A stretch of 64,000 nt of DNA, from assembly GCF_002355655.1 (NCBI RefSeq), contig NZ_AP017569.1, forward strand, positions 2,666,001 to 2,730,000. Direction: 5' to 3'. Every line of letters starts with the position of its first letter. The first letter of the stretch is position 1. A program made the translations under genes and the position numbers. The notes beneath the pieces are model-generated. The model was given only the letters and a program-made list of their open reading frames with translations. It made no database searches and was not told the DNA's origin. Source of the DNA: Halorubrum trapanicum. Lineage in GTDB: Archaea; Halobacteriota; Halobacteria; Halobacteriales; Haloferacaceae. Below, piece by piece: positions 17,911 through 46,618 of this stretch.

Positions 17911-18263
17911 GCTTATAAATGATCAACTACAGTTTGACGACGACCACCCCCGAAGCCCCGGTCGCTCGGCCGTACGAGAGTCGAATTTATAAATAACTGA
18001 TCCACACGACCACCGCCGAAGCCCCGGTCGCGAACCCGGCGCACGCTCGCTGCGCTCCTCACTCGGTCGCTATCGCTCCCTCGTTGCGGTGCTTGCGTCG
18101 CCTGCGCCGGGTTCGCGACCGCCCCTTCGAGTCCCACCCCGTACAGCACCGCAACCGCGCCTCACACCTCCCCAGCCTCGTCGCTCGCGCTTAAAAGCGC
18201 TCGCGACTCCCTCGCGCGTGCGACTCGCGCCCTTCGGGCGCTCGCCGGCACGCGCCACCGCAG
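17911..18263. repeat. Structured intergenic repeat element, copy 1
   Basis: This fills the gap between the convergent thiL and thiolase genes. It starts with two TATA-containing units whose 24-nt cores lie at 17942-17965 and 18008-18031 (66-bp period). Next is a perfect 19-bp hairpin (18026-18044 with 18104-18122, 59-nt loop) and a conserved tail (18123-18184). A variable part follows with small hairpins (for example GCGCCC-TTC-GGGCGC near 18226-18240), then the shared end CACGCGCCACCGCAG. Positions 18026-18184 align without gaps to 46210-46368. Loop segment 18085-18094 is complementary to tail segment 18146-18155 over 10 nt. Open frames here are Arg/Gly-rich by-products. Confidence 0.85.
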
Positions 18264-37813: not shown

Positions 37814-37887
37814 GGGCACATAGCTCAGCCCGGATAGAGCGTCGGACTTCTAATCCGACGGTCGTGGGTTCGAATCCCACTGTGCCC
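37814..37887 (+). tRNA. tRNA-Arg (anticodon TCT)
   Basis: A 74-nt cloverleaf with acceptor stem GGGCACA/TGTGCCC, D-arm GCTC-GAGC, anticodon stem TCGGA/TCCGA with loop CTTCTAA (anticodon TCT, reading AGA), and T-arm GTGGG-TTCGAAT-CCCAC. No intron. CCA is not encoded. A short-lived AT-rich region with a single foreign-looking gene follows at once, which makes the tRNA a possible integration point. Confidence 0.97.
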
Positions 37888-37953
37888 GTACAGTGAGGAG
37901 CGAAGCGTTAAGTGAGGAATGATATTATTATAACACAACTTCTTAACAGATAC

Positions 37954-45966: not shown

Positions 45967-46209
45967 CGGTCGCGAGGGGCGCAGCCGCTCGTTTATAAAT
46001 AGCTGCTGGCGGGTCGGCGGCGAACACCTCCAAAGCCCCAGTCGCTCGTTTATAAACATCTGTTCGCAGATCGGTGGCGAACACCTCCAAAGCCCCAGTC
46101 GCTTGTTTATAAATATCTGTTCGCAGATCGGTGACGAACACCTCCAAAGCCCCAGTCGCTTGTTTATAAATATCTGTTCGCAGATCGGTGACGAACACCT
46201 CCAAAGCCC
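45967..46209. repeat. 57-bp tandem TATA-bearing repeat leading into repeat element copy 2
   Basis: Exact-period units begin at 46024, 46081 and 46138, preceded by a diverged unit (45967-46023) and followed by a partial unit at 46195. Each contains CACCTCCAAAGCCCCAGTCG, a perfect TTTATAAA core, and in three units ATCTG-TTCG-CAGAT, a small hairpin with a TTCG loop. Units touch with no spacers, so this is not a CRISPR array. The TTTATAAA core is self-complementary and could act as a TATA box in both directions. Confidence 0.93.
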
Positions 46210-46510
46210 CAGCCGGGAGGACGCCGTACGCTCGCTGCGCTCCTCGCTCAGTCGCTGACGCTCCTTCGCTGCGGTGCTTACGTCGCCTACGGCGTCCTCC
46301 CGGCTGCCCCTGTGAGTCCCACCCCGCACAGCACCGCAACCGCACCTCACGCCTCCCCAGCCTCGTCGGCCCCCCTCCGCTTCGCTCCGGTCGGCCGACT
46401 CCAGCGAGAATCGAAGATTCTCTGGCAGCCGGCGCGTAGCGCCGGCGACCTCGCGCGTGCTGCCTCGCGGCCGCCGAGGGCGGCCGCTCGCAGGCACGCG
46501 CCACCGCAGT
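46195..46510. repeat. Structured intergenic repeat element, copy 2
   Basis: The perfect 19-bp hairpin is formed by 46210-46228 with 46288-46306 around a 59-nt loop. A conserved tail (46307-46368) is followed by a variable part with its own hairpins: AGAATC-GAA-GATTCT near 46410, GCCGGCGC-GTA-GCGCCGGC near 46432, and GCGGCCGCC-GAG-GGCGGCCGC near 46471. It ends with CACGCGCCACCGCAG. Loop segment 46270-46278 is complementary to tail segment 46330-46338. The stem differs from copy 1 at 8 of 19 pairs yet remains fully paired. A TTTATAAATGATC close to the end (46515-46527) resembles the start of copy 1. Between 46528 and 46618 I see only the next promoter. Confidence 0.9.
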
Positions 46511-46618
46511 TGTTGTTTATAAATGATCGTCGCCGTCGCTTGTCGGTATTTAAATACCATCTCGTCGATTCCGCGCTCGACCACCGAGAATTATCCCGCG
46601 GTCGGTCGAAGGAAGGAT

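What the first reader, a model, noticed from the sequence alone, without database searches (positions are those of the whole stretch)
18026..18184. Two intergenic elements share a hairpin with eight compensated base-pair differences
Positions 18026-18184 and 46210-46368 align over 159 nt with no gaps. The loop plus tail differ at about 12 of 121 positions. The two 19-nt arms differ at 8 of 19 positions, and every difference is matched on the other arm, so both stems are perfectly paired. Random drift would not keep pairing while changing sequence, so selection on a folded RNA or DNA hairpin is the simplest explanation. Gene conversion between arms is an alternative. I know of no named element with this form; identification as new is unverified.
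Basis: seen in the sequence. Interest (0 to 1): 0.88.

Follow-up and report, generated by a model that had tools for sequence, protein, structure and literature searches.

The report
Haloarchaeal intergenic repeat with covarying hairpin
The two matching hairpins are members of a large, apparently undescribed family of non-coding repeats, about 180 copies in this Halorubrum genome and related copies in most genera of salt-loving archaea sampled, in which the stem sequence changes freely while the folded shape and its unpaired purines stay fixed; this is strong evidence that the folded form has a function, which is still unknown.

Summary
Both 19-bp stems are perfect; 8/19 stem pairs differ, all compensated, against 12/121 differences elsewhere. 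The element is larger than described: about 300 bp with three hairpins and 57-bp leader units. 82 copies lie in 1.26 Mb of this genome (about 180 in all, roughly 2% of the DNA), mainly between convergent genes and usually at the same place and orientation in other Halorubrum species. The core occurs in 184/292 haloarchaeal genomes (50/76 genera), against 1/236 other genomes of the phylum. Covariation is strong: 97.4% of cells pair versus 84.5% shuffled and 26-48% slid; 28/37 pairs have two-sided changes. Arm-arm linkage is r=0.79 but arm-loop linkage about 0, so shared ancestry does not explain the pairing. The folded strand is the minus strand: G.U 56 versus A.C 16, and invariant tandem G.A and GGG/GGG mismatches. 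It is absent from Rfam and the phage collection, and not tied to Y1 transposases. RNA versus DNA is unresolved; I lean to a REP-like DNA hairpin (GNA/GNNA loops, no orientation bias). The function is inferred, not shown.

The parts
17912..17972 (+). copy A: upstream leader unit (TTTATAAA...AAGCCCCGGTCGC type)
   Evidence: nhmmer hit to family model; TATA-like box at 17913
17986..18016 (+). copy A: leader next to the hairpin, begins with TATA-like TTTATAAA
18017..18021 (-). copy A: P0 helix, one side (CGAAG), pairs with 18125-18129 (CTTCG)
   Evidence: in 187 copies CAAAG/CTTTG 136, CGAAG/CTTCG 39, mixed 2
18022..18024 (-). copy A: CCC (GGG on the folded strand), one side of the symmetric GGG/GGG internal loop; other side 18122-18124
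   Evidence: all six columns invariant in 55 aligned copies
18025..18043 (-). copy A: HP1 stem arm 1 (19 bp, perfect)
18044..18102 (-). copy A: HP1 inner part; on the minus strand 2-bp WC steps alternate with tandem G.A mismatches up to a 3-4 nt apical loop
18103..18121 (-). copy A: HP1 stem arm 2
18125..18129 (-). copy A: P0 helix, other side (CTTCG)
18130..18179 (.). copy A: conserved linker ending in the family tag CTCCCCAGCCTCG (18168-18180); G-rich on the minus strand
   Evidence: tag: 193 sites in the genome against 30 for the reversed control
18180..18207 (.). copy A: HP2, hairpin with a hypervariable stem
   Evidence: 1384 WC cells, 12 wobble or A.C, 20 other in 137 copies
18213..18256 (.). 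copy A: HP3, nested hairpin (GCGCGTGC..GCACGCGC outside)
45992..46201 (+). copy B: four tandem 57-bp leader units, each beginning with TTTATAAA (45992, 46049, 46106, 46163)
46202..46206 (-). copy B: P0 helix, one side (CAAAG); partner 46310-46314 is CTGTG, one mismatch
46210..46228 (-). copy B: HP1 stem arm 1
46229..46287 (-). copy B: HP1 inner part
46288..46306 (-). copy B: HP1 stem arm 2
46310..46314 (-). copy B: P0 helix, other side (CTGTG)
46315..46364 (.). copy B: conserved linker with tag CTCCCCAGCCTCG (46353-46365)
46365..46399 (.). copy B: HP2
46401..46448 (.). copy B: two additional small hairpins (46401-46425 and 46427-46448) inserted between HP2 and HP3; another copy (L012) carries the same insertion with a compensated stem
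46452..46502 (.). copy B: HP3
46515..46522 (.). copy B: TATA-like box just beyond HP3
   Evidence: TTATAA lies 11-25 bp upstream of HP3 on the minus strand in 102 of 210 copies

Best explanation
This is a REP-like, high-copy intergenic repeat of haloarchaea whose minus strand is selected to fold. SHOWN: the element is widespread, the minus strand carries a covarying hairpin (P0 helix, GGG/GGG internal loop, about 19 bp of free-sequence stem, then an irregular helix of 2-bp steps alternating with tandem G.A mismatches and capped by a GNA or GNNA loop), and copies stay at the same loci over species divergence while their stems change. INFERRED: the stem is only a scaffold, and the invariant unpaired purines are the recognition surface for a host protein. 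I think the functional form is most likely a DNA hairpin (cruciform or single-stranded DNA) at the ends of convergent genes, working as REP/BIME elements are thought to work in bacteria: a docking site for a topoisomerase or DNA-architecture protein, or for a past mobilising enzyme. The confidence given is for the DNA-hairpin reading as a whole; the class-wide, structure-selected element by itself I hold at about 0.9.
For: Covariation: 97.4% of cells paired against 84.5% shuffled; 266 two-sided cells against 68; covariation score 0.397 against 0.153, 0/500 shuffles; slid registers 26-48% paired. Ancestry control: arm1-arm2 Mantel r = 0.79, each arm against the loop between them -0.02 and 0.02. 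Strand: G.U 56 against A.C 16 on the minus strand, p = 2e-6; minus strand folds more stably in 59/60 copies, though this partly reflects base composition. Mismatches flanked by WC pairs are GA/GA 138 and AG/AG 24, next commonest 4. Apical loops: 98 of 136 HP1 triloops are GNA; 25 of 25 tetraloops are GNNA with a pyrimidine third base in 23, so not the RNA-typical GNRA; in HP2 cGAAg 74 and cGGAg 14 in 137 copies. That cGNAg and cGNNAg are favoured in DNA is from my own knowledge, not tested. Location: convergent gaps 34/81 against 56/352 of all gaps of at least 150 bp, divergent 10/81 against 155/352, no orientation bias in co-directional gaps, 20 against 17. Positional conservation, nearly always in the same orientation. 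Class distribution: 184/292 genomes, reversed control 0; other classes of the phylum 1/236.
Against: No protein partner was identified. G.U tolerance and stable folds are equally expected of an RNA. TTATAA at a fixed distance upstream of the minus-strand element in 102/210 copies could be a promoter for an RNA. More than half of the G.U excess comes from three columns, and the per-column sign test is only 15 against 7 (p = 0.13). HP2 shows no strand bias (6 against 6). Enrichment between convergent genes can also mean simply that insertions there do least harm.
Confidence: 0.45

Rival explanations
1. A multi-copy structured non-coding RNA transcribed from the minus strand, binding a protein through its tandem G.A and GGG/GGG motifs.
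For: Textbook covariation with G.U intermediates; tandem G.A helices; TATA-like box at a fixed distance upstream of the minus-strand 5' end in 102/210 copies; TATA-like boxes in the leader units as well.
Against: No orientation bias with respect to neighbouring genes; the TATA-like box would place the start inside HP3; tetraloops are GNYA rather than GNRA; no Rfam match; about 180 RNA genes of one family per genome would be unusual. In some other genera two units lie head to head with only about 25-30 bp between them, which leaves no room for two separate promoters.
Confidence: 0.35
2. A non-autonomous mobile element (MITE, PATE or REPIN type) spread by a transposase, with structure kept because the enzyme needs it. 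This is not exclusive of the DNA-hairpin reading.
For: High copy number, mostly full-length copies, presence/absence differences between species at otherwise syntenic gaps, inverted pairs in other genera resembling REP doublets.
Against: Copies are mostly at orthologous sites in the same orientation; no clean empty site or target duplication was seen in the few loci compared; 5 of 22 element-carrying genomes tested lack any Y1 transposase hit while most genomes without the element have one, and the own genome with about 180 copies has a single one; no similarity in the phage collection, and the 5 IMG/VR pattern hits lack the hairpin.
Confidence: 0.3
3. The stems stay complementary only because one arm is copied onto the other (template switching or gene conversion at a hairpin), with no selection on folding.
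For: Two-sided changes are at least as common as one-sided ones, and neighbouring stem bases often change in blocks between orthologous copies; arms are linked to each other but not to the loop; 2 of 178 scorable copies have the loop inverted relative to the flanks, showing that arm-arm recombination happens.
Against: The GGG/GGG and GA/GA mismatches inside the same palindrome are conserved instead of being corrected; wobble pairs are strand-asymmetric; the P0 covariation lies outside the uncorrected GGG/GGG loop.
Confidence: 0.1
4. Part of a CRISPR array, an integron attC site, or a transcription terminator.
For: The minus-strand motif GGGACTGAAAG superficially recalls the 3' end of CRISPR repeats (from memory); attC sites also have variable, complementary arms (from memory).
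Against: No CRISPR-repeat family scores at the element; single dispersed sites; no orientation bias to neighbouring genes; no T-run after the hairpin in the two window copies.
Confidence: 0.03

Closest known systems
REP/BIME/REPIN repeats of bacteria (GTAG- and CGTC-tagged families, PMC3733652; REPINs, PMC3116915)
   Same: High-copy intergenic palindromes, sub-families with complementary stem changes, G.T pairs in stems, singlets and inverted doublets
   Different: Core hairpin about 110-120 nt and whole element about 300 bp in Halorubrum, against roughly 20-40 bp; no GTAG/CGTC tag assigned; no Y1 (RAYT-type) transposase association; conserved GGG/GGG and tandem G.A architecture
PATEs, MITEs and SMRs of Haloquadratum walsbyi (PMC3119063)
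   Same: Transposase-free repeats with palindromes in a haloarchaeon, up to about 190 copies
   Different: PATE palindromes are near-terminal and related to IS605 ends; this element has central multi-hairpin architecture and covarying stems, is positionally conserved, and its core occurs in 50 genera. I did not align the two sets of sequences
Structured RNA families of Rfam 15
   Same: Covariation pattern and G.U tolerance typical of structured RNAs
   Different: No family matches at the element, even with E-values up to 5

Membership tests
REP/REPIN (RAYT-associated) | High-copy extragenic palindrome | tested here: met
   82 copies in 1.26 Mb, in gaps between predicted genes
REP/REPIN (RAYT-associated) | Associated Y1/RAYT transposase | tested here: not met
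   PF01797 absent from G066, G094, G263, G296 and G225, which carry 18-65 pattern copies
REP/REPIN (RAYT-associated) | GTAG or CGTC tag at the hairpin foot | not tested
   No systematic search; the conserved foot seen is P0 plus CCC/GGG
MITE | Terminal inverted repeats and target duplication | tested here: inconclusive
   No target duplication seen at the few loci compared, and no clean empty site
PATE (IS605-derived) | Near-terminal palindromes related to IS605 ends | not tested
   IS605 end sequences were not compared
Structured ncRNA | Significant covariation supporting one structure | tested here: met
   with shuffle and slide controls; for linkage
Structured ncRNA | Transcription of the folded strand | not testable with these tools
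   No RNA-seq available; TATA-like box only
Rfam family | Match above gathering score | tested here: not met
CRISPR repeat | Match to a CRISPR direct-repeat model or regular array | tested here: not met
   No CRISPR-DR match at the element; dispersed single sites

The most novel reading that the evidence does not exclude
A previously unnamed, class-wide haloarchaeal nucleic-acid element: a purine-mismatch hairpin (tandem G.A helix with GGG/GGG loop) kept by selection at roughly 180 chromosomal loci, serving as a genome-wide docking site (as DNA) or as a large family of structured RNAs with a dedicated, still unknown haloarchaeal binding protein.
Probability: 0.4. Interest if true: 0.85.

Novelty: new variant of a known kind. 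Interest (0 to 1): 0.66.

Why it matters
About 2% of this genome, and a large share of its convergent gene ends, is occupied by a folded element that was not found in Rfam or in the open literature searched. Its core is found in 50 of 76 haloarchaeal genera. The alignment gives an exact, testable structure: invariant purine mismatches inside freely varying stems. If a binding protein exists, the element would give an entry to how haloarchaea organise or regulate convergent gene ends. If it is mobile, it would be an archaeal counterpart of REP elements without a Y1 transposase. Genome annotators and RNA-seq users should also know it, because small hypothetical ORFs can be called over it.

Tried and rejected
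Rfam at gathering and relaxed thresholds: nothing at the element. Phage collection: no similarity. IMG/VR: 5 pattern hits without any hairpin, so chance. Y1-transposase association: rejected. Cis-acting mRNA element such as a terminator or 3'UTR structure: no orientation bias. Whole-hairpin cassette swapping as the sole source of the compensated differences: rejected because arms and loop are unlinked, although whole HP2 stems do differ at orthologous loci. Regular chromosomal spacing: slightly more even than random in one of three chunks (p = 0.02) and not clearly so in the others; not pursued. Keyword literature searches found no description; only open PMC papers are held.

Full report
OBSERVATION. 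With copy A shifted by one base (18025-18183), it aligns without gaps to 46210-46368. There are 28 differences: 8 in each arm, all at mirror positions, and 12 of 121 elsewhere. Both 19-bp stems are perfect. Copy A folds at z = -3.3.

THE ELEMENT. Copy B finds 41 scored matches in its own genome, 40 of them long, out of 224 candidates. A profile finds 82 elements in the 1.26 Mb read, so about 180 on the 2.84-Mb chromosome. The alignment shows that the finding is only the first part of a roughly 300-bp element: one to several 57-bp leader units with TTTATAAA, hairpin HP1 (the finding), a conserved linker ending CTCCCCAGCCTCG, hairpin HP2, hairpin HP3, then often another TATA-like box. The loop length of HP1 varies by steps that are not multiples of three, so it does not look coding.

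STRUCTURE AND STRAND. Outside the 19-bp stem there is a second helix, P0: CAAAG/CTTTG in 136 copies, CGAAG/CTTCG in 39, and mixed in 2. Outside Halorubrum it is GAAAG/CTTTC in all 37 copies parsed. Between P0 and the stem lies an invariant CCC/CCC (GGG/GGG on the minus strand). In a 57-sequence alignment of minus strands the structure has 97.4% paired cells (shuffles 84.5%, slides 26-48%), 28 of 37 pairs with two-sided changes, and 266 two-sided cells against 68 expected. After leaving out two copies with inverted loops, G.U is 56 and A.C 16 (p = 2e-6), although the excess is concentrated in a few columns. Predicted unpaired columns are almost invariant and consist largely of repeated GA facing GA. 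Among dinucleotide mismatches flanked by WC pairs, GA/GA (138) and AG/AG (24) dominate. The minus strand is the more stable RNA in 59 of 60 copies, which partly reflects base composition.

ANCESTRY CONTROL. Across 52 own-genome copies, distances between arm 1 and arm 2 correlate at 0.79, but neither arm correlates with the loop that lies between them (-0.02 and 0.02), nor with HP2, HP3 or the linker. So the arms change together independently of the rest, which is not what common descent of whole hairpins would give.

EVOLUTION AT FIXED SITES. At the thiL/thiolase gap, about half of 30 Halorubrum genomes carry the element at the same place and orientation, with different but paired stems. Among own, G043 and G022 the copies at syntenic gaps are nearly always in the same orientation. 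At these loci HP1 stems show 64 pair positions with two-sided WC changes, 50 with one-sided changes and 22 other two-sided ones, and HP2 is usually a different hairpin. Some gaps lack the element; those examined show replaced intergenic DNA and no target duplication.

DISTRIBUTION. All 30 sampled Halorubrum genomes carry it (3-156 strict matches). The 17-nt core is in 184 of 292 Halobacteria genomes and 50 of 76 genera, with the reversed control at 0 in every genome, and in 1 of 236 other genomes of the phylum. Outside Halorubrum the minimal unit is HP1 with the core, sometimes as head-to-head inverted pairs; the outer stem there is 421 WC of 444 cells with most positions showing three or four pair types. 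Plasmids hold few copies, and the phage collection none.

CONTEXT. 34 of 81 elements lie between convergent genes (56 of 352 of all gaps of at least 150 bp) and 10 of 81 between divergent ones (155 of 352). In co-directional gaps there is no orientation bias, 20 against 17 (genes predicted by my own simple dicodon script, so approximate, and long gaps are partly long because they hold the element).

RNA OR DNA. For RNA: G.U tolerance, and a TATA-like box 11-25 bp upstream of the minus-strand element in 102 of 210 copies. For DNA: no orientation bias; apical loops are GNA, or GNNA with a pyrimidine third base (23 of 25), not GNRA. The cGNAg and cGNNAg loops are known as unusually stable DNA loops (my knowledge). 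I lean to DNA at about 60:40; this step is inference.

MOBILITY. Y1 transposases (PF01797) do not track the element: five element-carrying genomes (18-65 pattern copies) have none, and most element-free genomes have some. A present-day IS200/RAYT-type mechanism is therefore unlikely; other enzymes were not tested.

KNOWN RELATIVES. No Rfam match. Bacterial REP families share high copy number and complementary stem changes (PMC3733652). Haloquadratum PATEs share palindromes and copy number but are IS605-related (PMC3119063). A 2025 survey of REPs in bacteria and archaea has no word beginning with 'halo' in its main text (PMC12306157). I found no description of this family, but only open-access papers were searchable.

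VERDICT. Selection on a folded minus strand is well supported; the molecule (DNA or RNA) and the function are open.

Noticed in passing
45992-46201: Four tandem 57-bp leader units upstream of copy B, each with TTTATAAA and ending in the same AAAGCCCCAG as the hairpin foot; unit number varies between copies, and adjacent units look more alike than units of different loci.
   Followed up: partly
46401-46448: Two small extra hairpins inserted between HP2 and HP3 of copy B; L012 has the same insertion with a compensated stem change (GAGAATC/GATTCTC against GAGGGACC/GGTCCCTC).
   Followed up: no
L110:4921-5035, L222:9-123, and a copy in L089: Copies in which the HP1 loop is inverted relative to the stem flanks, as if the two arms had recombined.
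   Followed up: partly
L283, L299, L300, L303, L304, L305: In some other haloarchaeal genera the element occurs as head-to-head inverted pairs separated by about 25-30 bp, in some cases with a palindromic centre.
   Followed up: partly
18130-18179 and 46315-46364: The linker between HP1 and HP2 is rich in G-runs on the minus strand and varies by shuffled CCGCA/CAGCA blocks; G-quadruplex formation was not tested.
   Followed up: no
37814-37888: tRNA-Arg (TCT), the only tRNA and the only Rfam match in the window.
   Followed up: no
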